Assembly (NCBI GenBank): GCA_948146395.1
Contig: OX411559.1
Coordinates: 30,968,708 to 31,032,707 of the forward strand
DNA: 64,000 bases
Direction of reading: 5' to 3'
From: Fragum whitleyi
Taxonomy: Eukaryota > Mollusca > Bivalvia > Cardiida > Cardiidae
Positions 51,101 to 63,672 of this stretch are shown in pieces; the stretch's first letter is position 1; the number at the start of each line of letters is the position of its first letter. A program made the position numbers and the translations under genes. The notes under the pieces were generated by a model, which had not been told where the DNA came from, searched no databases, and saw only the letters and a program-made list of their open reading frames with translations.

Positions 51101-54100
51101 AGACTTTGCTTGATCTGATAAATGTGTACACTGTTTCTCATTACAACATTTATTTGCTGTAATATTCGACCAACTTTAATGTCGTTAGATGTCCTCGATC
51201 TATTGCACGAGCAGATCACATGTTTATCGCATTCAAGTGTCTTTACTCAACTGAGTATGAGTTCAGGAATAAATTTCATCACAATTGAGTACCTAGTTGC
51301 CGGCCTAACTAAAGTAATGTCATATCAGTAAATTGGTCGAATTCAGGGTAAAATTATTTGTCATTGTAAAGTGATGCGTTATTTTTGGTGTTCAGTATAT
51401 AAGGTTTCGAACCGAGTATTTCAATCAACTATATTCAGGTAAAATCATCTTTTGAAAAAAACACCCGAGGTTCAAACTAATGATTTCACTTCATGATTGA
51501 TTTTATCAATTTATTCGTACTCCGAACTTTGTCCAACCCTTCTGTTTCCTTAGTTGGTCGTAGTTTCAATTTGGACAGATGTTTTTGTACATAAAACAGG
51601 TCTGTGTGCATTAGTTCAAACAAAATATTATGCCAGGTTTCGATTCTTATTTTGTGTAATTATTTAGGAAAAGGAAATAGGAAAACCACCAGAAGATACC
51701 GATGAGGCTACAAATGTCAAGCCAGAAGAAAATGGGTCCTTCACCGAAACAACCAATGAACCATTGAATACAAAATTCCGTATGTCTACCATGGTAAGAA
51801 GTTTGTTAGGATCCTTGCTTGGTAGAAACATTGGGGAAACAGAAAACTTTCCCAGGCCTTTGATTTTTGGAGCATTGAAGGCCTGTTTGTGTGACAATAT
51901 TAAGCTGTCTGCGGAAAAGCGAAGGTGCATTTTCTGGTTTTATCGGTTTCATTCGTAAAGAATCATTTTTTTTCTGCAAATATTCGCCGAAATAGCGCAG
52001 TTGGTAGCGCGTCCGACTGTCAATTTAGAGTTCCAGGGTCCGATCCCCGACGACGGCACTCATCCTTTCCGACTATTTGTCTCTCACCAATGGGTTGATA
52101 ATCGTAGACCTATGTGGGATAGTTGGAGGCTAGGAAAGGATGTGATGGTAGTACTAGTGTGAGAAATACCATGTTTCAATTATTAGATGCACCAACCGCC
52201 GAGATATGACTGAAATAATGTTATGGTTCACGTAAAGAGTTTTTGAGCCAATTTAATGCTGCGTCTATTCACAAAAAAGAAAAAAAAGTTTGCCCAGCTA
52301 AACAATATATCAAATTGAAGCTGTAGATGACAACAGGCATTTGCTCAATATTAGAGGCCCCATCTCATAACAGAATTGTCAAACTATCATGTAAAAGGGA
52401 TGTTTTGTTCAAAATCAACAACTTCAATACGGTTGGATAAACTTTGTCTAGATTTGAACAGAATGTAGACAAATGTCCCTACTAGGTACTACTACAACCT
52501 TAGATATAAAACTCAGTCCTTCAAGGCTCTTTTGAAACAACCAATTTCCATTTATTTTGACAACATACATTAAAAACCGGTTTGGTCTGTTTTTAAAATT
52601 AACGTTAGGTATGGTGCAACATCATACCATAATATCGTAAAATATTTTCTGCGATTTATTTCAAATTGTATCTACACATTTACAAAAAAATGACATATAT
52701 GGCATATTTGTTTATAAAATAAGTCAAAATAAATTGGCTTGAATAACTTCGTTATGGGTCCGAGTTTTACACCAACGATTGTGGTAGAACTTGGATAGTA
52801 CTTTTGACTGTATTTTATCCATCCGTCATGCAGATGCTTGTCCTGTACAAAACGACACTTTTCCAAAATGTTTTGGCTATACTGCTATAACTATGGCTGT
52901 CTTATGTTGGTTATTTAATTGTGCTCATAAATAGCTTCATTTTGATATATGATATTCCTAGACATACTGCTTTTTCTTGGCAAATGAAATGCCCTTAATA
53001 TTGGGTCTCAAACACTTTACATGAACCTTTAAAGCGGCGTAAAACCCTATTCAAACAAACAAATCTTTCTCAATTAAGTGTATTAAAATTTTCAAAAGTC
53101 TGTGAGTCAAATTATGAAAGCTTATGTCAACTCTTGTTTTAAACAGTTAACGCGTGCATATGTACATTGTATTTGACGCAGCTTTCAAGAATCTTAACCG
53201 AACGCAACCATTAAGCTACTCCCGAGATTCAGACGAAATTAGAGATTATTTATTACCTCATTTTAACGATACTCAAACCTCGCTCATTGCACTCATTCAA
53301 TTTCATTCCAAATTAATTGAAAAAAAAAAAAGCATATACCTCGCTAATTACATGATATTCGTATTGATATATTTCACGTACCTTTGCAGCTCAATTTGAA
53401 AGGAGTTCTACGCCGCTTTCAGACATCTTTCAGCTATATTGCGGCGCTGGAGCACCTAACAATTGATTCTTGGTAATTTTCTCATCAGTCCTACTTTCTA
53501 GCCTCCAGCTGCTATCCCACATTGGTCTACGATTTATCGACCCATTGGTGAGAGAAAATTAGTCGGAAAGGATGATTGCCGCTGTAGGAGATCGAACCCG
53601 GGACCTATAGAATGACAATTCGACTTGCACCTTAAGATATCGTATTCAGAGTATTTGGCTATGCGTAGTTTACAGTAAGTTACATCGTGAAATTGACATT
53701 CATATCAATCAAAACCATTTTAAATCGCTCACTCAGCGCTCCATTCATTCATTCTAAACACTCACTCAAATCTCAAAAAGGCTCTAAAATGACTAAATAA
53801 AGATAAAATCAAGTTACATTCAAAACATTCAAAATGAATAAAACATAAAAAAACACGAGATTTTACTAGCATAATTGAAAATGTAACGGCCTGATTGGTT
53901 CTTGAAGGAATAGGAAGCCATTTATAGAACTTGTATGCATGTTTTATTACAGGAAGATGATTAATATAGCTATTTCTTATTCATCTTGAACAAAATTAGC
54001 GATATTGGATTACCTCCCATTATATTTACCCAAACCTCGCTCTACACTCTCGTTCAACTTCAGTCCAATATCATTCCAAAATCATTCATCTTATCAATTT

Positions 54101-54404
54101 GATGGCGTTGTTAACTGTAATCATTTTGACTTTGTTTCACACGGTTCCGGCTCCTCTTTTCCCTCCAATCCAAAAGGAATTCAACACAGCTGATAGCACA
54201 AAGGATGAGAAAAATACGGAATTCGGCGAAGGCGTCGAAGAAAAGGCAAAAAGAACGAAGAAGAAGAAGAAGAAAAAGAAGAAGAAACACAGAAATTCCG
54301 TCTTTCCAGAAGAAACTCTTGTTACGGTTTCTGGAGACATCGAAAAAATTGGGTTGGATAACATAAACGACACAAAAACAAATACAGCTTATTCAGATGT
54401 TTGA
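36058..54404 (+). CDS. Predicted CUB-like single-pass membrane protein, seven exons
   Basis: Exons: 36058-36148, 38678-38716, 43194-43559, 44540-44857, 47346-47458, 51668-51793, 54177-54404. Phases are 1,1,1,1,0,0; the sum is divisible by three and gives 426 residues (421 from the Met at 36073). All introns are GT-AG. Protein order: signal peptide, short Cys-containing linker, CUB-like domain, Ser/Thr-rich stalk, membrane helix, charged tail with a poly-Lys run, C-terminal S-D-V (class I PDZ-ligand pattern). CUB domains are extracellular binding modules; the ligand is unknown. I recognise no named orthologue. The model rests on phase agreement and domain logic, not on transcripts; exon 7 is the least certain. 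An alternative last exon is at 55832-56107. Confidence 0.75.
36220..36511. mobile_element. MITE family J in intron 1
   Basis: The last 146 bp (36366-36511) are a palindrome with ends ataatacgtac(t/a)aag and gtacgtattat and a cgacagagcctcg centre. The preceding 145 bp ('gtatgatattttttatgata' onward) are shared with the copy at 44880-45452. Both copies start shortly after a splice donor of the CUB-like gene. Confidence 0.65.
36512..38450 (+). pseudogene. 5'-truncated non-LTR (LINE) reverse transcriptase fragment
   Basis: One frame from about 36512 to 38026, broken by TAA at 36947-36949. It starts within the RT core: 'IRQSIRQGGSASGFMY' (motif B region), 'ALADDITL' (the catalytic -ADD- motif C) and 'GFEFNTEKT'. 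The downstream part has the 'LYGCELW' thumb-side motif and a Cys-His cluster 'CTLCNCNINVENLIHWLTTC' as in CR1/jockey-like LINEs. The endonuclease half is absent. The 3' region ends in a 'gataaaataaataaaaataa' tail near 38450. Dead on arrival or later decayed; it lies in intron 1 of the CUB-like gene, same strand. Confidence 0.8.
38042..38228 (+). other. Two related stem-loop structures in LINE 3' region
   Basis: Hairpin 1 (38042-38113): outer stem GTTGGTGTG/CACACCAAC and an inner 12-bp stem with G-U pairs. Hairpin 2 (38156-38228): outer stem GTCGTTGG/CCAACGAC and inner stem gtcgtaaatgcagcc with ggctgtacttgcgac. Both keep GTTTCGATMA on the 3' side of the internal loop. The stems differ in sequence but stay paired, suggesting a conserved RNA fold in the LINE transcript. 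Confidence 0.65.
38678..38716 (+). CDS. Exon 2: 39-bp microexon
   Basis: The acceptor is tttctatatttctag and the donor ATG G|gtaagt. It encodes 'CVTARCADDPFM' with phase 1 at both ends, so skipping would keep the frame and remove 13 residues including two cysteines. It lies 2.5 kb after exon 1, just beyond the LINE fragment. Confidence 0.7.
38824..38990. mobile_element. MITE family B, hairpin element
   Basis: ttaaggtagtgtaaccgtaa at the left, ggtttcctaatgaaattcat at the centre and 'ttacgggtcaactacatt' at the right. It lies 108 bp after exon 2 of the CUB-like gene. Confidence 0.75.
39000..39829. other. Intron 2, no further feature
   Basis: AT-rich intronic DNA between the family B and family A MITEs. 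No conserved frame was seen. Confidence 0.4.
39830..40080 (-). mobile_element. MITE family A, partial copy
   Basis: Begins 'tatcgacatcgtgaaagtga' and runs past the 'caagggaggtagtcca' half-hairpin to 'gtgagtgaaatcg'; the other end is missing. Confidence 0.6.
40085..40904. other. Intron 2, no further feature
   Basis: No repeat partner or coding signal was noticed. Confidence 0.35.
40905..41062 (-). mobile_element. MITE family A, half copy
   Basis: Starts 'ttagtgattttggagagttt' and ends 'cgatgctactaattgtac', the terminal half of the family. Confidence 0.65.
41086..41500 (-). mobile_element. MITE family A, diverged complete copy
   Basis: The ends 'gcagttaacaacatagtg' and 'cacgatgtatcaaactgta' are inverted. 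The middle is changed and lacks most of the central hairpin. Confidence 0.65.
41645..42087 (-). mobile_element. MITE family A, best-preserved copy
   Basis: The ends tacagttaacaacatcgtga and cacgatgtaattaactgta are inverted repeats. The central hairpin is gggaggtaatccagtattgc ... caatattgattacctccc (41750-41812). Useful as a family reference. Confidence 0.85.
42375..42812 (+). mobile_element. MITE family A, complete copy
   Basis: Starts 'gagttaagaacatcgttaaa' and ends 'tacgatgtttttagctgtta'. Inverted relative to the neighbour at 41645. Confidence 0.75.
43194..43559 (+). CDS. Exon 3: CUB-like domain
   Basis: 122 residues after the acceptor tgattccag. 'CPRTINGSEIQIQNQGFPNTG' followed by 'CNCTIKTPGSELNITVYYMDL' fits the CUB pattern (Cys, GFP, Tyr/Gly turn, Cys-x-hydrophobic, P-G, alternating hydrophobic strand). 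Several N-x-S/T sites ('NGS', 'NIT', 'NQS', 'NLS'). The donor GAA G|gttcgt is weaker than the others. The open frame reaching back to 43085 is intron. Confidence 0.8.
43562..44097. other. Intron 3, no further feature
   Basis: Non-coding sequence between exon 3 and a family D MITE; no repeat partner was noticed. Confidence 0.4.
44098..44520. mobile_element. MITE family D, complete copy in intron 3
   Basis: It has the atttatcgagaaatatcggc end with its small hairpin, 'cctgcttttgtgcatttcat', and the long palindrome ctatattttcactcgtggct / gccactcgtgaaaatacagc. Its end is only about 20 bp before the exon 4 acceptor. Confidence 0.8.
44540..44857 (+). CDS. Exon 4: Ser/Thr-rich stalk
   Basis: The acceptor is ctattttttacag and the donor GGT C|gtaagt, phase 1 at both ends. 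106 residues with many Ser, Thr, Pro and Ile ('ETTTAITSSPTPITT', 'STPIFALSSASTRR', 'TFTTSKTTRDTESFS'), as in O-glycosylated stalks. No domain recognised. Confidence 0.75.
44880..45452. mobile_element. MITE family J in intron 4, interrupted by a SINE
   Basis: It has the same left part as the copy at 36220 ('gatattgtttatgatatcac') and the palindrome ends ataatacgtacttagtg (45035) and agtacgtattgtat (45452). The palindrome centre is split by a SINE at 45133-45398. Confidence 0.75.
45133..45398 (+). mobile_element. SINE family 1, complete, with 12-bp target duplication
   Basis: The head 'tctagcgcagttggttaggc' with B-box 'gggttcgatccccgg', the body, and the 'gcggcgtaaaacccattcaa' tail with aacaaacaa. 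It is flanked by ATCAATCCCCCC (45121-45132) and ATCGATCCCCCC (45399-45410), a target duplication with one mismatch. This defines the exact element ends and puts its insertion after that of the MITE. Confidence 0.9.
45558..45724. mobile_element. MITE family K, hairpin element
   Basis: The ends aaggtagaatgaaatttt and aatcattctacctt, with inner arms gcaaattgccaaaattttcg ... 'cattttggcaatttgc' and tctagctgcattttgt / agaatgcagctaga, form a long imperfect palindrome. Confidence 0.75.
45730..46270. other. Intron 4, low-complexity stretch
   Basis: A run of 20 A's around 46070-46088 and aacaacaac runs; no other feature. Confidence 0.4.
46275..46550 (+). mobile_element. tRNA-derived SINE (family 3)
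   Basis: The head has a 7-bp acceptor-like stem (gccgagt ... actcggc), 'tttagctcagtcggcaatgc' and 'gggttcgatacccg'. Its D-stem pairing is imperfect, so it is not a normal tRNA gene. The body continues 'gattcggaaccgcctgagac' ... 'gatattgaaacgacttcatg'. Confidence 0.65.
46915..47293 (+). mobile_element. MITE family A, diverged copy
   Basis: Starts 'tgcagttaatttcatcaaac' and ends 'cccgatgttcttaactgta'. It lies about 50 bp before the exon 5 acceptor. Confidence 0.6.
47346..47458 (+). CDS. Exon 5: membrane helix
   Basis: The acceptor is gttttttcag and the donor GAA AAG|gtaagt. It encodes 'VIIGIIVGLAILVAVLVIVFVV' followed by 'RKRLKKSKEK', a clear transmembrane segment with a basic stop-transfer, so the C-terminus should be cytoplasmic. 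The phase changes from 1 to 0. Confidence 0.85.
47460..48350. other. Intron 5, no further feature
   Basis: T-rich run at 47740-47768 next to a weak tRNA-like fragment ('gtccaaggatcgaatctcat' at 47707-47726). No gene. Confidence 0.35.
48354..48441 (-). mobile_element. tRNA-like sequence (SINE head or tRNA pseudogene)
   Basis: On the minus strand 'gtccgtagcgcagtggtcta' (A-box) and 'acctggttcgaatacgca' (B-box) are spaced as in a class II tRNA. The closing stem is poor. No SINE body known from the window follows, so it may be a separate family. Confidence 0.5.
48929..49187 (-). mobile_element. SINE family 1
   Basis: The tail 'gtttgtttgaatgaggtttt', the body, and a head ending 'cgcgctacgacagtggc'; the A-box region has a small deletion. 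Confidence 0.8.
49290..49515. mobile_element. MITE with TTACTAAA ends and central 27-bp palindrome
   Basis: 'ttactaaagttcttacgg' at the left faces 'tcgtaagatgtttagtaa' at the right. 'gtaagtcaaaattaaaaat' faces 'atttttgacttac'. The centre is atctcggatatataatatccgagat at 49388-49412. Confidence 0.7.
49520..50224. other. Intron 5, mostly unique sequence
   Basis: A family B MITE fragment (ttaaggtagtggacccgtaa ... ttcggaactcataatctttc) at 49888-49955 is the only repeat noticed. Confidence 0.5.
50227..51399 (-). mobile_element. Tc1/mariner-like DNA transposon, decayed
   Basis: 1173 bp. The terminal inverted repeats are TATACTGAAC followed by A(A/C)CAAAAATAACGCATC on both sides (about 30 of 32 positions match). 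TA is duplicated at 50225-50226 and 51400-51401. Minus-strand translation shows broken transposase traces such as 'HATMDFLRKH' and 'DWTYLKIQHVKYE', resembling the family's 'TMDFLRQ' and 'DWPALSPDLNPIEH' region, with stops and frameshifts. Inactive; it lies in intron 5. Confidence 0.8.
51402..51667. other. End of intron 5
   Basis: Unique-looking intron end leading to the exon 6 acceptor; nothing else seen. Confidence 0.3.
51668..51793 (+). CDS. Exon 6: acidic juxtamembrane tail
   Basis: The acceptor is gtaattatttag and the donor ACC ATG|gtaaga. 42 residues, Glu/Lys/Thr-rich ('EKEIGKPPEDTDEATNVKPEE'). Phase 0 at both ends, so it can be skipped without breaking the frame. It lies just right of the Tc1/mariner-like remnant. 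Confidence 0.7.
51987..52240 (+). mobile_element. SINE family 1
   Basis: The head 'atagcgcagttggtagcgcg' with B-box 'gggtccgatcccc', the full body, and a degraded tail ('atgttatggttcacgtaaag'). Confidence 0.85.
52245..53025. other. Intron 6, no further feature
   Basis: No repeat partner or coding signal was noticed. Confidence 0.35.
53026..53068 (+). mobile_element. SINE family 1 tail fragment
   Basis: tttaaagcggcgtaaaaccc followed by tattcaaacaaacaa: only the last 40 bp of the family. Confidence 0.6.
53397..53628 (-). mobile_element. SINE family 1, head-truncated
   Basis: Starts 'gaaaggagttctacgccgct' and ends within the tRNA-like head ('cgaacccgggacctatagaa'). Confidence 0.8.
53674..54118 (+). 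mobile_element. MITE family A, complete copy at the 3' end of intron 6
   Basis: Starts 'agttacatcgtgaaattgac' and ends 'gatggcgttgttaactgta' only about 60 bp before the exon 7a acceptor. Its end therefore contributes to the acceptor region and encodes the first residues of the misleading long frame starting at 54099. Confidence 0.75.
54177..54404 (+). CDS. Exon 7a: terminal exon, copy in tandem unit 1
   Basis: 75 residues: acidic start, a run of 11-12 Lys encoded by (aag)n, then 'HRNSVFPEETLVTVSGDIEK' and a 'DTKTNTAYSDV' end. AATAAA follows at 54446-54451. The acceptor (ctcctcttttccctccaatccaaaag) is the only AG after the pyrimidine tract. The homologous site is lost in exon 7b. Family A MITE sequence ends about 60 bp upstream. 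Confidence 0.6.
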   Translation, partial: EFNTADSTKDEKNTEFGEGVEEKAKRTKKKKKKKKKKHRNSVFPEETLVTVSGDIEKIGLDNINDTKTNTAYSDV

Positions 54405-54639
54405 TATAAATATGCATATATAGTAATGATAATAATAATAATAATAATAAAAATAATAGATCTATCTTTATTTAACGAAGGTTGTTATCATTAAGCCACC
54501 ATTACAAAACAACATCACAATGATTAACTTATTTACAATAAGGCCTTCAAACAACATTCAATATATATGCGAACCGTCACCCTGAAACGGACCAGCCGGG
54601 AACTCCCCAAAATAAATATTTGAAAAAAAAAATAAATAA

Positions 54640-54850
54640 ATAAATGAAAATGATTGGCTGTAGTAGAGGTCAACCAGAGGTCGCATTTCAAAAAAGTCTA
54701 AAACAAGCAGGTAAAACGATCGTTCTTGATTCATAAAATCGGTTGAGTGCCAAAATTATGGACCCTAGTCAGGTTTCACAGCCTGACAAGTGTTGACACT
54801 TGACACATGTACATTTTCGCCCAACGAGTCACTTTTTTGAACTAGATTAA
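54640..54850. mobile_element. Diverged family C MITE, unit 1
   Basis: 'gattggctgtagtagaggtc' 'aaccagaggtcgcatttcaa' and the caggtttcacagcctgac hairpin parallel the 8213 element. It is repeated in unit 2 at 56335-56530. Confidence 0.55.
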
Positions 54851-54906
54851 TACAGTTAAAACATAGTGAAATTGACACTCATTCCGATCAAAATCATTCA
54901 CTCGGC

Positions 54907-54998
54907 GCCCCATTCATTCATTCATTCATTCTTTCTTTCTTTCATTCATTCATTCATTCATTCATTCATTCATTCATTCATTCATTCATTCATTCCAA
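54907..54998. repeat. (ATTC)n microsatellite
   Basis: About 90 bp of attcattc with an interruption (ctttctttctttc). A shorter tract is at the equivalent place in unit 2 (56597-56637). Confidence 0.9.
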
Positions 54999-55831
54999 CT
55001 AATCGCTTAGATCGATCAACAACACTTCGAAATCATGAGAAAACATTTATAATCGTTAAAGAAGATATAGGTGTATTTTCAAAACTGAGCTCTGACCTAG
55101 GCGTTGAGTCCATTACCATAGGTTAATGAATAAACCTTAAGATCTAAGACAAGCACTAAGTTTCACTTGAAAGGTAATTTGTATCTTTATTATGTCTGTT
55201 TTATCTATTTTGAAAGAAAAGCACGGAAATTTAACCGTTAAAGGTAGATTTTACAGCTCACCGCACAAAATCCACCTATACACTTTTGATTCAAAGTTTG
55301 CATGAATGTTTTGAATGAATCAAGCGGTGATTGAGCGATTTAGAATGATTAAGGTAGCAATGGACACACGTCTTCTTTTTTTCTTCCCAATGAATTTTTT
55401 TCTTGGTCACATATGTTGTAGATTAACATTGTGTAGTCATTATATCAAAATCTGAAGGTACCTTTCCACGCTCGTTTTCATGCTAGAGTTATCTGTCCTT
55501 GAGTGGTATAGGCCATTTTTCAGTAAAACGGTTATATTCGTTTTTGGTCTAGTAAAAACCCTGTACTAAGTTATAGCTATAAAACACATATATTTTGATA
55601 GACCAAGCCTTTTATAGAACTTGTATGTATGTTTTATTACAGGGAGGTGATTTATATAGCTAATTTTTTCATCTTGAACAAAATTAGCGATATCGGATAT
55701 CCTCCCATTAAATTTACCCAAAACTCGCTCCACACTCTCGTTCAACTTCAGTCCAATATCATTCCAAAATCATTCATCTTATCAATTTGATGGCGTTGTT
55801 AACTGTAATCATTTTGACTTTGTTTCACAAG

Positions 55832-56107
55832 GTTCCGGCTACCCTTTTCCCTCCAATCCAAAAAGAATTAAACACAGCTGATAGCACAAAGAATGAGAAC
55901 ATTACGGAATTCGACGAAGGCGTCGAAGAAAATGCAGAAGGAAGGATGAAGAAGAAAAAGAAGAAGAAAAAGAAGAAGAAGAAGAAGAAACACAGACATT
56001 CCGTCTTTCCAGAAGAAACTCCTGTTACGGTTTCTGGAGACATCGAAAAAAATGGTTTGGATAACATAAACGACACAAAAACAAATACAGATTATTCAGA
56101 TGTTTGA
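55832..56107 (+). CDS. Exon 7b: alternative terminal exon, copy in tandem unit 2
   Basis: 91 residues plus stop. It is homologous to exon 7a but 11 residues longer at its start and with a longer Lys run from (aag)n. It keeps the S-D-V end and has AATAAA at 56123-56128. The acceptor here is gactttgtttcacaag|GTT, phase 0 and in frame with exon 6. In unit 1 the same site reads cacacg and is dead. Conversely, the 7a acceptor site reads caaaaa here. Use of 7b would give a 442-residue protein (from the Met at 36058). Confidence 0.55.
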   Translation, partial: VPATLFPPIQKELNTADSTKNENITEFDEGVEENAEGRMKKKKKKKKKKKKKKHRHSVFPEETPVTVSGDIEKNGLDNINDTKTNTDYSDV

Positions 56108-56334
56108 TATAAATATGCATTTAATAAAAATGATAATGATAATAATAATATCTTTATTTAACGAAGGTTATTTTATTAAGACACCATTACAAAACAACAT
56201 CACAATTATTAACTTATTCACAATAAGGCCTTCAAACAACATTCAATATATATGCGAACCGTCACCCTGAAACGGACCAGCCGGGAACTCCGCAAAATAA
56301 ATATTTGAAAAAAAATTTAAATAAATAAATGAAA

Positions 56335-56530
56335 ATGATTGGCTGTAGTAGAGGTCAACCAGAGGTCGCATTTCAAAAAAGTCTAAAACAAGCAGGTAAA
56401 ACGATCGTTCTTGATTCCTAAAATCGGTTGAGTGCCAAAATTATGGACCCTAGTCAGGTTTCACAGCCTGACAAGTGTTGACACTTGACACATGTACATT
56501 TTCGCCCAACGAGTCACTTTTTTGAACTAG
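56335..56530. mobile_element. Diverged family C MITE, unit 2
   Basis: The duplicate of the 54640-54850 element, nearly identical to it, as expected for a recent tandem duplication. Confidence 0.55.
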
Positions 56531-56963
56531 ATTAATACAGTTTAAACATCGTGAAATTGACACTCATCCCGATCAAAATCATTCAATCGGCGCCCCATTC
56601 ATTCATTCATTCATTCTTTCATTCATTCATTCATTCCAACTAATCGCTTAGATCGATCAACAACACTTCGAAATCATGAGAAAACATTTATAATCGTTAA
56701 AGAAGATACACTTTTGATTCAAAGTTTGCGTGAATGTTTTGAATGAATCAAGCGGTGATTGAGCGATTTAGAATGATTAAGGTAGCAATGGACACACGTC
56801 TTCTTTTTTTCTTCCCAATGAATTTTTTTCTTGGTCACATATGTTGTAGATTAACATTGTGTAGTCATTATATCAAAATCTGAAGGTACCTTTCCACGCT
56901 CGTTTTCATGCTAGAGTTATCTGCCCTTGAGTGGTATAGGCCATTTTTCAGTAAAACGGTTAT

Positions 56964-57435
56964 GGTTACACTCCTGTCTGTTTTGGCCGTGTTAAATTAT
57001 ATAGTAAATTGGCACATTTTGACAGTCTGTAGCTCTTTTAAAAAACTAATTTGGGCTAAATAACTTAGTGTGGCTTAAAGAGCAATATATGTTCTTGCAT
57101 ATCAGCCCCAGAAAACAGTACCTTGCAGGATAACTTTTTTCACAATTTTTCATTGCGCACAACTACCCTCAAAATTCTCTTGGTACGAAAGTGTATGTCA
57201 ACTCTGGTACCTCCATCAAAGGTCAGGCTCCAAGAAAAAGTAGTTCGCAACTAAATTCATTTAATCCTATGCATGAAATGTAGCAGAGGTCTGGCACTTA
57301 GCTGAACCTCATTTCAAGCCCTTTACTGTTATTTAAACATTAAAACGGTGTGGCAAAAGGAGCATATCATTTTTTCTAACCGGACTATTTGAGGGTACAA
57401 CGACCTAGGAAGTAAATTGTGACCGGAGCGGATCC
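56964..57435 (+). repeat. Left direct terminal repeat, 472 bp
   Basis: I find no difference from the right copy reading base by base. Starts ggttacactcctgtctgttt, ends gaccggagcggatcc. Non-coding. Its right flank is TAAA, not TTAT, so it is not an independent insertion with its own duplication. Confidence 0.9.
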
Positions 57436-58343
57436 TAAATATCAAACTTTTTTTTTTCAATTTTGACAAAAATGCCCCCATTTGAAGCGCATATGTATTA
57501 CAACATTCCCCGTTTTTAAATTTTCCAAAAATATCACTTAGAAGAAAAATGGCAGTAGAATTAGTACAAGGCCTATATTTCTGAAATTAGGGCCAAAAAG
57601 GAGTAGTTTCAGTTTCCCTCACCTGATGGTTAGAAATTGCCATAACTTTTGTAAAAAGTCATCAATTTTCATAAAATAAAAAGTCCCTTGCAGAAAAATT
57701 ACTCTTCTTCACTTTGAACCCTTTCCCAGATGTCTATGCTAAAATGAAATGCTTTAAAAAATAGCATTTAAAAAAAAAAGTGAATTTAAATTTTAAAAAA
57801 AAGTTCAATTATTGTATAGAAATTTCAATACAATGAACACAAAACCTCATGAATGGGTGATTCTAAAAAATATAATATGTTTACACTAAGTTAGAGTAAA
57901 AAAACACCTAGGAAAAAGGAAAATACACTTAATTTGACAGTGTTGAAAAGGGTAAGGTGAACTGTAAATGGGCATTAGGTCTTTAGAGCAAAATAGTGGT
58001 GGTGTTTATCTTTTGTCTATTATGTTAAATCTTAAGTTCTATTTTTTTTTTTTTTACTTTTACCATTTTGATCAAAGAGGCTTCTGTATCAAAATACAAG
58101 GATATTGGTGAAACAAAGAGAATGGGCTCTAACAGGATATATCCATACAGGGGCTAGGGTCTGGAAGCTGATTATCTTAATATCAAGTGGTCACTTTGAA
58201 TGCCAACCAATCCAATTAGTGCCGTCATATGACACTGACATTGCTGGGTAGGTATAAAAGAAGATGCAAAAGCCTTTCAATACCATAACCAGCTACTCAT
58301 TCATTATAGAGAAATCTTAAAATAAATAAAATATTTTTTCGAC
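57436..58343 (+). other. 5' internal region of the transposon
   Basis: Non-coding leader between the left terminal repeat and the transposase. AT-rich with several A and T runs. The TATA box lies at its end. Confidence 0.5.
58253..58260 (+). promoter_or_regulatory. TATA box of the transposase
   Basis: TATAAAAG, 84 bp before the start codon at 58344; predicted start of transcription near 58283. It lies inside the element, so each copy carries its own promoter. Confidence 0.6.
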
Positions 58344-60212
58344 ATGGTTAAACGCAGCAGATCAAACTATTTTCAAAAAGGGAATACATATCATTTATTG
58401 AGAAGTAACCAACCAGGACCCTCCAGTCAAACCGGTGAAGAAAATGGTTCTATTTCAACTACCGACAACACCCTTTCTGGGGATCGCACCTGTAACCTGC
58501 GACAACGTGACACAGATCAAGATGCCTTCAAGGGAAACCGTATTGTGAGCATGAGCAAGTTAGTATTTTCTATAAATCAACTGGTGAAAAGCCACAACAG
58601 GACAAGATGCAGGGCTCCTCAGATCACCTTTGCAAATGAGGTGAAAGCAGGACTTGGAATAAAACTACAATTTAAATGCAACTCATGTGGCTATCTGTCA
58701 GATTTTTTCAAAATGTATGAGGAAATTAAGGATACCAGAGGCGCGGCGGTACTCAATACGAATCTTGCTGTGGCACTGATGGATAGCCCCATGGGTGTAT
58801 CCAGAGCTGAGGACTTATTCACACAACTTGACCTGCCTTTTCCAGCAGCAAGCCATATGCATGAACTCTGCAAGCAGGTCAGCAAGAAGATTGTAAAGAT
58901 AAACAGTGATGATATGGCAGAGAAACGTGAAATTGTGACAAAACACAACATTTCTATTGGCTCAAAGGATCCAAAGCAGTTAGACCTTTCAATTGATGCT
59001 AGATATAATAGCCAGAGAATGATTTCCTCCTACAAACCAGGGCAAAGCTCATCTCAGGCATATACTATAGCGACCGAGAATCATACATAATACAAGTTCA
59101 TTGTCGCGATGTCGGTTGAAAACAAGCTCTGTATGACAGGGGCCTCCCTCAGATACAAAGGACTGGATGTATTCTGCCCTGGTGGTCATGCAGGTTGCTC
59201 TGCAGACTTAGAATACTTCACACCACACTCAGAAAGAAAAATGGCTTACAATGTGGCTGAAGACTTATACAAAGACGGGTTCTTGGTTCGAACGCTAACC
59301 ACGGATGGCGACACAAAGTCTCAGCTCGGCATGCAGGACTTTTACAGAACTCTCGATGACGTGTGGAATGTGACAAGGCAGGCCGACCCGAATCATTTAT
59401 CCGTTTGCCAAGAGAGGAAAGTACGTAACGTTAACTTTAGTGAAAAAATGTTCCCGTTCAATACGAAGCGTGACAGACAGACCGCACAGGGGAAGCTGGG
59501 AAATGACATAAGAATGCGGTGTAATGCTATAATTGAAGAAATGGCAAGAAGGGGACAGGGGGACATAACCAAAATGTTGAAAGACTTACCCTCAATAAGA
59601 TCATCTACTGTGGACTGTTATGCTGGAAATTGTAGTAACTGTGCCAACCATTCACTTGTATGTGATGGCGTTTCAACTTGGTGGCACAATTCTAAAGTAC
59701 TAGGCCCTGCGAACATAACATATCTGCGTATGACTGAGAACGACAAGGCGCTGTTGGAAGTTATTTTGCAGATGAGACTTAGTGAAGGTGCAATCTACAG
59801 TGTGAGTTCAAGGACATCCACACAGAAGTGTGAAGCATTTAATAGGGCAGCATCTGCAACCTTAAGCAAAAATATAAACTACAGCAGGACTTTCACTGGA
59901 AGACTTTCAGCCCAAATATTGCGTTCTAACAATACTCTGGACATAGCAGTCAGAAAGAAACTTTGGAAAATATCGGGGACCGGGCTTGGAGTTTGGGCCA
60001 AAAAGCGACTCCAGCAAATTTCTTTAAAAAGAATTAAGGACAAATTGTACAGAAAAACCGACACTTTTAAAAGGAACCGCCTTAGAAGAAGAGCTCTTAT
60101 GGAATTTCAACACCGCGAGGTTAAGAAAAAACGAAACGTAAACGAAATACAGGACTACATTAAAGGCGTGGCCAATGATGACATACATAATTATGCGCAG
60201 ACTGTCCACTAA
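58344..60212 (+). pseudogene. Mutator-like DDE transposase, one in-frame stop
   Basis: One frame of 622 codons broken by TAA at 59088-59090. The first part (248 residues) has a basic N-terminus, a 'CNSCGY' knuckle and the first catalytic Asp in 'LSIDARYNS' (residue 218). The second part (367 residues from the next Met) has 'NKLCMTGASLRYKG', 'CPGGHAGCSADL', the second Asp in 'TTDGDTKSQ' (residue 66), a Cys cluster 'CYAGNCSNC', 'WWHNSK', and the likely catalytic Glu in 'TSTQKCEAFNRA' (residue 242), ending in a basic tail. These are the hallmarks of the Mutator-like transposase domain of molluscs and cnidarians. Such enzymes cut and paste DNA. The stop may inactivate this copy; read-through cannot be excluded. 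Confidence 0.85.
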
Positions 60213-60722
60213 TAGGGAAATAGATGAGACAGAGATTTACGGGACCAAATCACAAATAAGATGAGATGAGACAGGATGAGACAATCTCTGTCTGGTGTAG
60301 AGCAACACCACTGATGAGGCTTGATGCTAGCCGAAACAGAGCAAATTCATACAAAAGGGGCGTTTAAGGGGCTCATGTCCCAAGGTTTAGGGGTTAATCC
60401 AAATCTTTTTTTGATGTAAATTCAAGTTGTTTACAGTTAAAAAGTCTGGTTCAGGTGATCAATGGTGCAGACAGCTTGTTATGACATCATGTGAAAAAGG
60501 CCAAAGCATTCCAATTGGAATCAAAGTACTTAAAAGGGATAAAATTGACATTTTAATATTTTTTTAAAAAAATCAAATTCAAATTTCAATTAAATTGTAG
60601 GAATATTATTAAAATCCAATTCTTGAACATATTTACTAGTGCACAGTGACATTTTGAGCCCAAAATCTACGAAAAGAACATTACAAGCGTTATTTTTGTG
60701 TGACCCCCCCCATCTTGATATA
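60213..60722 (+). other. 3' internal region of the transposon
   Basis: Non-coding. It holds the hammerhead ribozyme 70 bp after the transposase stop, then AT-rich DNA with a C run (60704-60710) up to the right terminal repeat. Confidence 0.6.
60286..60341 (+). ncRNA. Hammerhead ribozyme (type III) in the transposase 3' region
   Basis: All parts are present. Stem III is CTCTGT (60286-60291) with ACAGAG (60336-60341). The cleavage site is C60292 in GTC. Stem I is TGGTGT (60293-60298) with ACACCA (60305-60310), loop AGAGCA. The core CTGATGA is 60311-60317. Stem II is GGCT (60318-60321) with AGCC (60329-60332), loop TGATGCT. GAAA is 60333-60336. Every stem is perfectly paired and every core base fits. 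It is on the transposase strand and would cut the transcript 80 nt after the stop codon. Hammerheads are known in retroelements and satellites; I know of none in a Mutator-like transposon. Confidence 0.92.
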
Positions 60723-61194
60723 GGTTACACTCCTGTCTGTTTTGGCCGTGTTAAATTATATAGTAAATTGGCACATTTTGACAGTCTGTAGCTCTTTTAA
60801 AAAACTAATTTGGGCTAAATAACTTAGTGTGGCTTAAAGAGCAATATATGTTCTTGCATATCAGCCCCAGAAAACAGTACCTTGCAGGATAACTTTTTTC
60901 ACAATTTTTCATTGCGCACAACTACCCTCAAAATTCTCTTGGTACGAAAGTGTATGTCAACTCTGGTACCTCCATCAAAGGTCAGGCTCCAAGAAAAAGT
61001 AGTTCGCAACTAAATTCATTTAATCCTATGCATGAAATGTAGCAGAGGTCTGGCACTTAGCTGAACCTCATTTCAAGCCCTTTACTGTTATTTAAACATT
61101 AAAACGGTGTGGCAAAAGGAGCATATCATTTTTTCTAACCGGACTATTTGAGGGTACAACGACCTAGGAAGTAAATTGTGACCGGAGCGGATCC
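60723..61194 (+). repeat. Right direct terminal repeat, 472 bp
   Basis: The same as 56964-57435. It is followed by the TTAT duplication and the continuation of tandem unit 2 ('attcgtttttggtctagtaa'). Confidence 0.9.
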
Positions 61195-61421
61195 TTATAT
61201 TCGTTTTTGGTCTAGTAAAAACCCTGTACTAAGTTATAGCTATAAAACACATACATTTTGATAGACCAAGCCTTTTATAGAACTTGTATGTATGTTTTAT
61301 TACAGGGAGGTGATTTATATAGCTAATTTTTTCATCTTGAACAAAATTAGCGATATCGGATATCCTCCCATTAAATTTACCCAAAACTCGCTCCACACTC
61401 TCGTTCAACTTCAGTCCAATA

Positions 61422-61973: not shown

Positions 61974-61991
61974 TGGGGGCTCGTCCGGGAT
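61974..61991 (+). promoter_or_regulatory. Primer-binding site, tRNA-Pro type
   Basis: TGGGGGCTCGTCCGGGAT, complementary to the 3' end of tRNA-Pro and identical to the site known from murine gammaretroviruses. It lies 3 bp after the LTR, where minus-strand DNA synthesis begins. Confidence 0.9.
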
Positions 61992-62166: not shown

Positions 62167-63672
62167 ATGTCTTTTGACTTGGAAAAATTTACGCACGAAC
62201 CTTCCGTGGAGCTATTGAATTTGGGTAAAAAGTCTTATTTGCTCAATCTTGCCAAGCATTATTAATTAAAAGAAGTCAAGTCCTCATTGCGAAAGCATGA
62301 AATTAAAAATATTTCGATTCAATATTTTGTTTATGAGGACATTTTTGATGAAAAGGCTCTATCTCTCATTGTTGATGTTCCATCAGTTGCAAGCTCAAGA
62401 GAGCTTGAACTGTTAAAACTTCAACAAAGGGAGAAGGAATTGGAAATTGAAAGAGAAAGAGCACAATTAGAAATTGAAGAGAAAGAAAGAGAAAGGCAAT
62501 TTCAAAGAGAAAGGGAAGAGCGAGAAAGAGAAGAAAGAGAACGAGAAGAAGAGAGAGCAGAGAGAGAGCGAGAAAAAGAACGAGAATTTCAATTACGATT
62601 AAAAGAATTAGAAATTCAAGATAGCGCAAATCAGCCCAGATATATGTATAATGACCATTTTGATGTAACAAAACATTTTAGGCTTGTTCCTCAATTTCAA
62701 GAAAATGAAGTTGATACATATTTCGAACATTTTGAAAAAGTTGCAAATAACTTGAAATGGCCAAAGGAGCAATGGACCTTACTTCTCCAAAGTGTCTTAG
62801 TAGGAAAAGCTCGCAATATTTATTCGCAACTTAGAACAGAACAAAGCAATGATTATGATACTATAAAAGAACTCATTCTCAAAGATTATGAGCTGGTTCC
62901 AGAAGCATACAGACAACAATTTAGAAGTTGTAGAAAAGAATCTGGCCAGACTCACGTTGAATTTGCAAGAAATGAAGAAAAATTATTTGACAGGTGGTGC
63001 TATTCTAAGAAAATAGACCAAAATTATGATAATCTTAGACAACTTATATTAATTGAACAATTCAAAAATTGCATTCAATCTGACATTAAGTCACATTTAG
63101 ATGAAAAAAATGTTGAAACTATACATGAAGCAGCTCGTTTAGCTGATGATTACTACCTTACACACAAAAATTCTTTCGTTTATAAAGCAAAACCTGCTTC
63201 CTCACATCCCCAAAATAAATCTATGTCTGGTGATTCATCTAGCATGTCTAGTCAATCGAATTCACCTAAACCAAAGTCTACTGGTGAAACCAATGTTCAA
63301 AATCCCTTATCTCGAGTACATTGTACTTTTTGTAAAAAACCAGGTCACCTTATTTCGGAATGTTTTAGATTAAAAAGGAAGAAGGAACTGAGTGCAGGCA
63401 AACCTACAGGGCTCACCAGCCTTCAGCCTAAATCACAGCCTTCTTTTGAGTTAAATTCAATTGTTAAGGCAGAGCCAAATTCTGATTCCTGTATGGAGAT
63501 TTTTGAACCGTTCATGTTAGATGGTTTTGTATCACTTTCAGGTGATATGTGCCCACCTACCCCTATCAAAGTTTTAAGAGACACAGGAGCTTCTCAATCT
63601 CTTATTTTAGCAGATGTTCTGCCTTTTCTGGGAAGACTTCCTCTGGTACTAGTGTCCTTATTCAGGGTGTAG
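62167..63672 (+). pseudogene. Gag and protease of gypsy-type retrotransposon, broken
   Basis: The likely true start is ATG 62167 (context taccATGt), but TAA at 62263-62265 stops it after 32 codons. The same frame reopens (Met at 62287) for 461 residues. From that Met: a Glu/Arg-rich coiled coil (about 36-110), a retrotransposon Gag domain (about 128-295), a CCHC zinc knuckle C346-C349-H354-C359, and the aspartic protease motif DTGA (432-435). The frame is then lost in a T run at 63624-63627, one base short of continuity with the downstream pol frame. Gag forms the particle; the protease cuts the polyprotein. This copy cannot make the full product as read. Confidence 0.85.

What the first reader, a model, noticed from the sequence alone, without database searches (positions are those of the whole stretch)
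60286..60341. Complete type III hammerhead ribozyme inside a Mutator-like DNA transposon
All three stems are perfectly paired, the CTGATGA...GAAA core is complete, and the GTC cleavage site is in place. It lies on the transposase strand 70 nt after the stop codon. Hammerheads are established in retrozymes, Penelope-like elements and satellites, but I know of none tied to a DDE transposase. Self-cleavage there could remove the poly(A) tail, limit transposase expression or free a defined RNA end. The function is inference; the motif is seen directly.
Basis: partly seen in the sequence, partly recalled or inferred. Interest (0 to 1): 0.92.

Follow-up and report, generated by a model that had tools for sequence, protein, structure and literature searches.

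The report
Self-cutting RNA in a DNA transposon
Directly behind the transposase gene of a cut-and-paste DNA transposon sits a complete hammerhead ribozyme motif whose paired stems have changed together between distantly related families of the element, so the transposon's own messenger RNA is predicted to cut itself there and likely lose its tail, a trick I found described for RNA-copying elements but for no DNA transposon.

Summary
Window 60286-60341 is a complete type III hammerhead (Rfam RF00008, 43.0 bits, E 4.6e-07; below the curated cut-off of 48.5). The element is a KolobokP composite-like DNA transposon (56964-61194), not a Mutator element: two identical 472-bp terminal direct repeats, 4-bp target duplications, head-to-tail arrays, as described in 2022 (PMC9587614), whose main text never mentions a ribozyme. 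All 74 of 74 distinct copies examined carry the motif; 317 places in the genome match its 35-nt 3' part within 3 mismatches. New here: two further KolobokP families, with transposases 45-50% identical to this one, carry a related hammerhead at the same place. All 144 of 144 pair cells are kept, 10 of 16 pairs changed on both sides; a model built from this family alone finds them at E about 6e-11. A fourth family has none. An upstream strand pairs with the same strand as stem III, ending exactly at the cleavage base, so the 3' UTR may be bistable. Most likely the ribozyme trims the poly(A) tail off the transposase mRNA and throttles it; this is inferred. Cleavage was not tested.

The parts
56964..61194 (+). 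whole KolobokP-type element, LTDR-INT-LTDR
   Evidence: direct repeats and a paralogous empty site at 55278-55758
56960..56963 (.). target site duplication TTAT, left
61195..61198 (.). target site duplication TTAT, right
56964..57435 (+). left long terminal direct repeat, 472 bp, ends GGTTACACTCC...GGAGCGGATCC (imperfect inverted ends, 11 of 15)
60723..61194 (+). right long terminal direct repeat, identical to the left one
58253..58258 (+). TATAAA, candidate promoter box upstream of the ORF
   Evidence: string match only
58344..60212 (+). DDE transposase frame (PF20700), broken in this copy by TAA at 59088-59090; 622 aa and open in other copies
60228..60237 (+). upstream strand GACAGAGATT, complementary to 60283-60292 (10 bp); competes with stem III and ends at the cleavage base
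60286..60341 (+). type III hammerhead ribozyme motif
60286..60291 (+). stem III 5' strand CTCTGT (pairs with 60336-60341, or alternatively with the upstream strand)
60292..60292 (+). predicted cleavage nucleotide C17 of the GUC site
   Evidence: position in the hammerhead fold; cleavage not tested
60299..60304 (+). loop I AGAGCA (A..GCA kept in the other families)
60322..60328 (+). loop II TGATGCT (TGATGCC in most copies of the second type)
60589..60613 (+). two ATTAAA candidate poly(A) signals, both downstream of the ribozyme
   Evidence: string match only

Best explanation
A type III hammerhead motif, kept as a pairing pattern across distant families, lies directly behind the transposase gene of a KolobokP DNA transposon and is predicted to cut the transposase transcript 80 nt after the stop codon, which would remove the poly(A) tail and likely holds transposase production down. 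Shown: the motif, its place in three families, its conservation with pair-preserving changes, and its position between the stop codon and the first downstream ATTAAA signals in the window's family. Inferred: that it cuts in cells; that the 5' product then closes its new end by pairing AATCTCTGTC with the upstream GACAGAGATT, a 10-bp hairpin ending exactly at the cut, which would block re-ligation; and that the same upstream strand, made first and more stable on paper, gates cleavage by competing for stem III, so that the 3' UTR works as a two-state switch. In head-to-tail arrays the same cut would also separate read-through transcripts into units.
For: Motif: RF00008 E 4.6e-07. Presence: 59 of 59 distinct copies with the ORF end and at least 150 nt downstream, 54 of them found without the motif in the query, and 15 of 15 further ends. 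In these 74 copies the motif shows 6 different substitutions, 4 in loops and 2 turning a pair into a G-U type pair, none in the core (chance of 6 of 6 compatible 0.002-0.006). 317 places match its 35-nt 3' part within 3 mismatches, reversed-pattern control 0. Deep conservation: hammerheads at the same place in families at C3 (L073, cut 75 nt after the stop) and C9 (L075), and in remnants L091, L092 and L093. Pair counts: 16 pairs, 144 of 144 cells paired, 10 pairs changed on both sides, slid controls 32-56% paired. Not circular: a model from the window's family alone finds the others at E 1.6e-11 to 7e-09 (rough E-values), while an unrelated hammerhead (L100) gets only E 0.025. Between L073 and L075 the 68 nt around the ribozyme are 97% identical, the coding region 75%. 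Loop I A..GCA is invariant and loop II TGATGC largely kept while stem I is wholly replaced, as a loop-loop contact would ask. Alternative upstream pairing: 10 bp in the window family (17 of 5,000 base shuffles as good), 9 bp in L076 (31), 10 bp in L075 (0), 7 bp in L073 (168) and L093 (189); the upstream strand changes along with stem III (ACAGAG to ACAGGA). The first downstream ATTAAA signals lie behind the ribozyme.
Against: No cleavage data and no transcript data. Rfam score under the gathering cut-off, and Rfam does not list the second type in L073-L075 or L091-L093, which has one extra U between A9 and stem II. The predicted lowest-energy fold is the upstream hairpin, not the ribozyme (-23.0 against -17.3 kcal/mol for the listed helices; best fold overall -30.0, best with the ribozyme forced -18.9), so the ribozyme could be mostly off. 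The upstream pairing is absent or weak in L091 (4 bp, 4,680 of 5,000 shuffles as good) and L092 (6 bp, 284). Family 3 has an AATAAA overlapping its stop codon, upstream of the cut, so tail removal may not apply there. Family 2 (L072, two units) shows no hammerhead and is also intact and tandem, so the ribozyme is not needed for the KolobokP life cycle. The covariation rests on essentially one deep split, and two of its measures do not stand out from shuffles (pairs changed on both sides 30 of 500, pair types 360 of 500). Throttling one's own transposase is not an obvious gain for the element.
Confidence: 0.55

Rival explanations
1. Retrozyme-like role: the ribozyme cuts transcripts of the head-to-tail arrays into unit-length RNAs of about 3.75 kb that are circularised and spread by someone else's reverse transcriptase.
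For: Arrays of 3,740-3,760-bp units (46 of 62 successive spacings among the listed rows on C1, C5 and C11) with one ribozyme per unit; plant retrozymes carry type III hammerheads and spread via circRNA (passages of PMC7229834).
Against: Insertions have DNA-transposon ends, 4-bp duplications in 3 of 3 single insertions of which I held both ends, and repeat-loss junctions with small differences (6 distinct INT-INT junctions, 3 sequence variants). The ribozyme lies outside the direct repeats, unlike in plant retrozymes. No reverse transcriptase frame is among the frames of 100 aa or more in the element. The upstream hairpin would oppose ligation.
Confidence: 0.15
2. 3'-end maturation: the cut makes a stable, tail-less transposase mRNA capped by the terminal hairpin, a positive rather than a limiting step.
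For: The 10-bp hairpin ends exactly at the cleavage base in two families and is the predicted fold of the 5' product.
Against: Hairpin weak or absent in L091 and L092; candidate poly(A) signals exist downstream; no RNA data.
Confidence: 0.2
3. A passenger: a hammerhead captured from a retroelement, carried along without use.
For: The genome holds other hammerheads (L094, L095, L100), and family 2 does without one.
Against: Same place and related sequence in families with 45-50% identical transposases, 10 of 16 pairs changed on both sides with none broken, core intact in the 74 copies examined.
Confidence: 0.07
4. Chance motif.
For: About 0.02 such arrangements expected per 64-kb window with loose loops.
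Confidence: 0.01

Closest known systems
KolobokP composite-like DNA transposons (Kojima and Bao 2022, PMC9587614)
   Same: LTDR-INT-LTDR, LTDR about 450 bp with short inverted ends, RR...YY termini, 3-5-bp duplications, shared-LTDR multimers, LTDR excision with small deletions, transposase with CCHC and DxxH motifs
   Different: The paper's main text has 0 occurrences of 'hammerhead' or 'ribozyme' (supplements not read). The window's family has a ribozyme and no match to a His-Me finger endonuclease; family 4 (L075) has both; family 2 (L072) only the endonuclease.
Plant LTR retrozymes
   Same: type III hammerhead in a repeat-flanked mobile element
   Different: there the ribozymes are in the LTRs of non-autonomous retroelements (passages); here one lies behind a transposase gene, outside the repeats
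Penelope-like elements, Terminons and animal retrozymes
   Same: hammerheads in animal mobile elements, often in tandem
   Different: those are type I and tied to reverse transcription (passages of PMC7229834 and PMC7761336)
Clec2 discontinuous hammerhead in mammalian 3' UTRs (Martick 2008, via a passage of PMC6155905)
   Same: type III hammerhead in the 3' UTR of a protein-coding mRNA
   Different: host gene, very large helix I; not a mobile element

Membership tests
Type III hammerhead ribozyme | core CUGANGA / GAAA and NUH cleavage site | tested here: met
   CTGATGA, GAAA, GTC
Type III hammerhead ribozyme | three helices, helix III open | tested here: met
   stems I, II, III of 6, 4 and 6 bp, all paired
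Type III hammerhead ribozyme | Rfam gathering score for RF00008 | tested here: not met
   43.0 against 48.5 bits, E 4.6e-07; I file it as a hammerhead motif on core, fold and covariation, not on this cut-off
Type III hammerhead ribozyme | self-cleavage; loop I-loop II contact | not testable with these tools
   needs in vitro transcription; loops are largely conserved
KolobokP | two direct repeats of about 450 (or 660) bp with short inverted ends, RR...YY termini | tested here: met
   472 bp identical, GG...CC, 11 of 15
KolobokP | 3-5-bp target duplications | tested here: met
   TTAT, AGTG, ATTT in 3 of 3 single insertions of which both ends were held
KolobokP | multimers sharing repeats; loss of repeats with small deletions | tested here: met
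KolobokP | DDE transposase with CCHC finger after the first D and C/DxxH motif | tested here: met
   C263, C278, H282, C285 and D348, H351 invariant in A1 (assignment to the paper's motifs is mine); best PDB fold match P element transposase, E 4.7e-04
KolobokP | antisense His-Me finger endonuclease | tested here: not met
   no match in the window's element, found in L072 and L075; the paper says most, not all, families have it, so it is not required for membership
Mutator (MuDR) | 8-11-bp target duplications (recalled) | tested here: not met
   4 bp; only the Pfam domain name points there
LTR retrozyme | hammerhead inside the LTRs of a non-autonomous retroelement | tested here: not met
   60286-60341 lies outside 56964-57435 and 60723-61194; a 622-aa transposase gene is present in open copies
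Penelope-like element | reverse transcriptase | tested here: not met
   the frames of 100 aa or more inside the element are the two transposase pieces and one antisense frame overlapping them

The most novel reading that the evidence does not exclude
The first ribozyme that belongs to a DNA (class II) transposon: in one ancient clade of KolobokP the transposase mRNA carries a bistable 3' UTR in which one strand chooses between an upstream partner (uncut, tailed, translated) and the hammerhead (cut, tail-less), all three strands changing together, so that an RNA switch without any protein sets how often a cut-and-paste element jumps.
Probability: 0.3. Interest if true: 0.9.

Novelty: new variant of a known kind. 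Interest (0 to 1): 0.78.

Why it matters
In the papers seen here, self-cleaving ribozymes of mobile elements are described for retroelements, satellites and circular RNA agents, where RNA is the thing copied. A conserved one in an element that moves as DNA is hard to explain by RNA replication, so it points to control of the transposase message. It gives a directly testable system: about sixty nucleotides, an exact predicted cut site, natural variants with replaced stems, a family without it, and a candidate built-in competitor strand. It also puts type III hammerheads, mostly reported from plants, in an animal genome in some 300 places (317 matches to part of the motif).

Tried and rejected
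Rejected: chance; Mutator superfamily (4-bp duplications); a separate insertion carrying the ribozyme (74 of 74 distinct copies have it); my first idea that the direct repeats are LTRs of a retrozyme or pseudo-LTRs of a Penelope-like element (KolobokP explains them); the idea that ribozyme and endonuclease exclude each other (L075 has both).

Led nowhere: relatives of the transposase in viral contigs and genome contigs (none confirmed); the loop-based hammerhead pattern in genome contigs and viral contigs (29 stretches, 0 of 29 with a full six-pair stem I); RF00008 as a family search of the whole genome (3 weak hits, and it missed the window's own copy, so it says nothing on absence); solved structures by sequence (none); P0020 and P0004 as queries of the genome (no new family). 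My strict hammerhead scans missed the second type because of its extra U; I saw it by eye.

Full report
Observation. Rfam scores it 43.0 bits, E 4.6e-07, under the curated cut-off of 48.5; the gathering scan of the window therefore lists nothing. The alignment shows five inserted bases in the stem I loop against the family consensus. A loose scan of shuffled sequence gives about 0.02 equal arrangements per window.

The element. Two identical 472-bp direct repeats (56964-57435, 60723-61194) flank a 3,287-bp internal part with one transposase frame. A second copy of the flank in the window shows the empty site and a TTAT duplication; two other single insertions show AGTG and ATTT. The frame is interrupted at 59088 in this copy and open in others (622 aa from its ATG). 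The genome (1.22 Gb, 38 contigs, unnamed; the many large contigs, some 19 as far as seen, and the KolobokP load suggest a bivalve, an inference) holds long head-to-tail arrays: of 62 successive spacings among the listed ribozyme rows on C1, C5 and C11, 46 are 3,740-3,760 bp, 7 are 3,270-3,280 bp and 9 are other (from the 100 rows listed). Units of the short kind lack one direct repeat: 6 distinct junctions were read, with 3 sequence variants at the joint. Each of these traits is described for KolobokP by Kojima and Bao (PMC9587614; I read parts 1-4 of 6 of the text, and passages; not the supplements). The protein fits too: residues that match the paper's CCHC and DxxH motifs are invariant in an alignment of 38 sequences, and the predicted structure (mean pLDDT 82.6) matches the Drosophila P element transposase best (E 4.7e-04; the only match at E below 0.001), a superfamily which that paper groups with Kolobok by a shared signature.

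Is the ribozyme part of the element? One search found the core behind 64 of 64 ORF-end occurrences with at least 150 nt downstream; these are 59 distinct copies, 59 of 59 with the motif, and 54 of the 59 were brought in by a query without the motif. Fifteen more ends fetched from protein and domain hits have it 15 of 15. These are well-preserved copies, since the searches list the best matches only. Over the 74 the motif has 6 different substitutions: four in loops, two turning a pair into a G-U type pair, none in the core; the flanks have 16 over 153 sites against 6 over 58, so the motif is not spared change, only harmful change. If changes fell at random, 6 of 6 compatible has a chance of 0.002-0.006. 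Genome-wide, 317 places match 28 fixed positions of the 35-nt 3' part within 3 mismatches, reversed control 0; the 100 rows listed all have 0 mismatches, the rest were not shown.

Other families. Protein queries taken from homologues brought out family 2 (C11, L072) and families 3 and 4 (C3, L073; C9, L075). Family 2 has a His-Me finger endonuclease on the other strand (PF05551, E 7.3e-13) and no hammerhead by Rfam or by a model of my own (best 9.9 bits, E 0.26). Family 3 has a hammerhead 75 nt behind its stop and no endonuclease match; family 4 has both. A genome pattern then gave 14 places, of which 8 are this second hammerhead type (C3 four times, C7, C9 twice, C12) and 6 I judged spurious by eye; reversed control 0 and 0. 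Three of the new ones were fetched (L091-L093), and all three lie next to transposase remnants of the family-3/4 kind. They were found by their intact core, so their core says nothing on conservation; L073 and L075 were not found that way.

Covariation. Aligned over 11 sequences (9 distinct), every one of 144 cells is paired; 10 of 16 pairs have changed on both sides, stem I entirely. Slid controls pair 32-56%. None of 500 shuffles reaches the observed pairing, the cells changed on both sides or the covariation score; the number of pairs changed on both sides is reached by 30 of 500, and the number of pair types by 360 of 500. This is essentially one deep split between two ribozyme types, so it counts as one strong comparison, not ten. 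A model from the window's family alone finds the other type at E 1.6e-11 to 7e-09 (rough values) and ranks an unrelated hammerhead of the genome far below (E 0.025). Loop I A..GCA is invariant, loop II TGATGC is kept in most rows. The second type has an extra U between A9 and stem II in every copy aligned; a viroid hammerhead with an extra nucleotide there is recalled from memory (the listing did not show it, and I read none of its papers for this). In the transposase tree the ribozyme families fall in one clade of 23 rows (support 88/85), with family 2 in the neighbouring clade of 7; the DNA behind the database rows could not be read, so their ribozyme status is unknown.

A competing strand. 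GACAGAGATT (60228-60237) pairs with AATCTCTGTC, whose last base is the cleavage nucleotide. The equivalent is 9 bp in L076, 10 bp in L075 and 7 bp in L073 and L093, but 4 and 6 bp in the remnants L091 and L092. It uses the same strand as stem III, and its sequence follows the stem III change between families. On paper it is stronger than the ribozyme fold. Shuffles as good, of 5,000: window family 17, L076 31, L075 0, L073 168, L093 189, L092 284, L091 4,680; the region is rich in GACA-like words, which these shuffles do not keep.

Mechanism. The ribozyme lies between the stop codon and the first downstream ATTAAA signals in the window's family. I take it to cut the transposase mRNA there, remove the tail and limit expression, with the upstream strand as gate and trap. 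Cutting, gating and limiting are all inferred. Family 3's AATAAA at the stop codon and family 2's lack of a ribozyme are the main points against a general need.

Literature. In the held open-access library, hammerhead + Kolobok and ribozyme + Kolobok give 0 papers, and KolobokP gives 1. The listings for hammerhead with DNA transposon, transposase, Mutator or Penelope-like (14, 20 and 44 listed only the best 25 of 53, 15 of 27 and 15 of 23) and for type III hammerheads in animals showed no such case in the titles and abstract beginnings seen. Six papers I saw in part or by passages: PMC9587614 (parts 1-4), PMC7229834, PMC6431247, PMC8490949 (its authors found no complete transposase frame in their hammerhead-bearing repeats), PMC7761336 and PMC6155905. 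Subscription papers and bioRxiv preprints are not covered.

Noticed in passing
L094, L095 (C1:53865242, C2:97713611) and further places: A second hammerhead-like family, CTGATGAGTTCTAATTTGAACGAAAC with a very short stem III, makes up 46 of the 74 places (reversed control 18), in head-to-tail runs of about 1,725 and 4,558 bp; it looks like the minimal hammerheads of Penelope-like elements (Rfam HH9, E 2.4e-04 in L095).
   Followed up: partly
L100:56-110 (C12:48469330): An unrelated type III hammerhead (RF00008 42.8 bits, E 3.4e-07), context not examined.
   Followed up: no
L096, L097, L098 (C4:55626353, C6:68181735, C3:31883307): Three places share CTGATGAGCC...GGCGAAACG followed by a GGTTTTAT stretch; core halves of a hammerhead without a clear full fold.
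   Followed up: no
L072:3207-3665 and L075:551-937: Open antisense His-Me finger endonuclease frames of two KolobokP families, 46% identical to each other.
   Followed up: partly
L035, L019, L033, L030, L026, L029: INT-INT junctions lacking a direct repeat, in three sequence variants, as described for KolobokP repeat excision.
   Followed up: yes
L073, L075, L091, L092, L093: An extra U between A9 and stem II in every aligned copy of the second ribozyme type.
   Followed up: partly
window 62266-63672: gag-like frame with a SCAN match (PF02023, E 2.9e-13) and a zinc-knuckle-like stretch below cut-off, next to a stretch near 61975 that looks to the eye like a primer binding site; the KolobokP copy sits in a repeat beside it.
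   Followed up: partly
window 53915-56963: About 1.69-kb sequence present twice head to tail, 82-99% identical by piece.
   Followed up: no
P0037: A KolobokP-like transposase is named as from a Candidatus Thiodiazotropha genome bin (a clam symbiont, recalled); likely host contamination.
   Followed up: no
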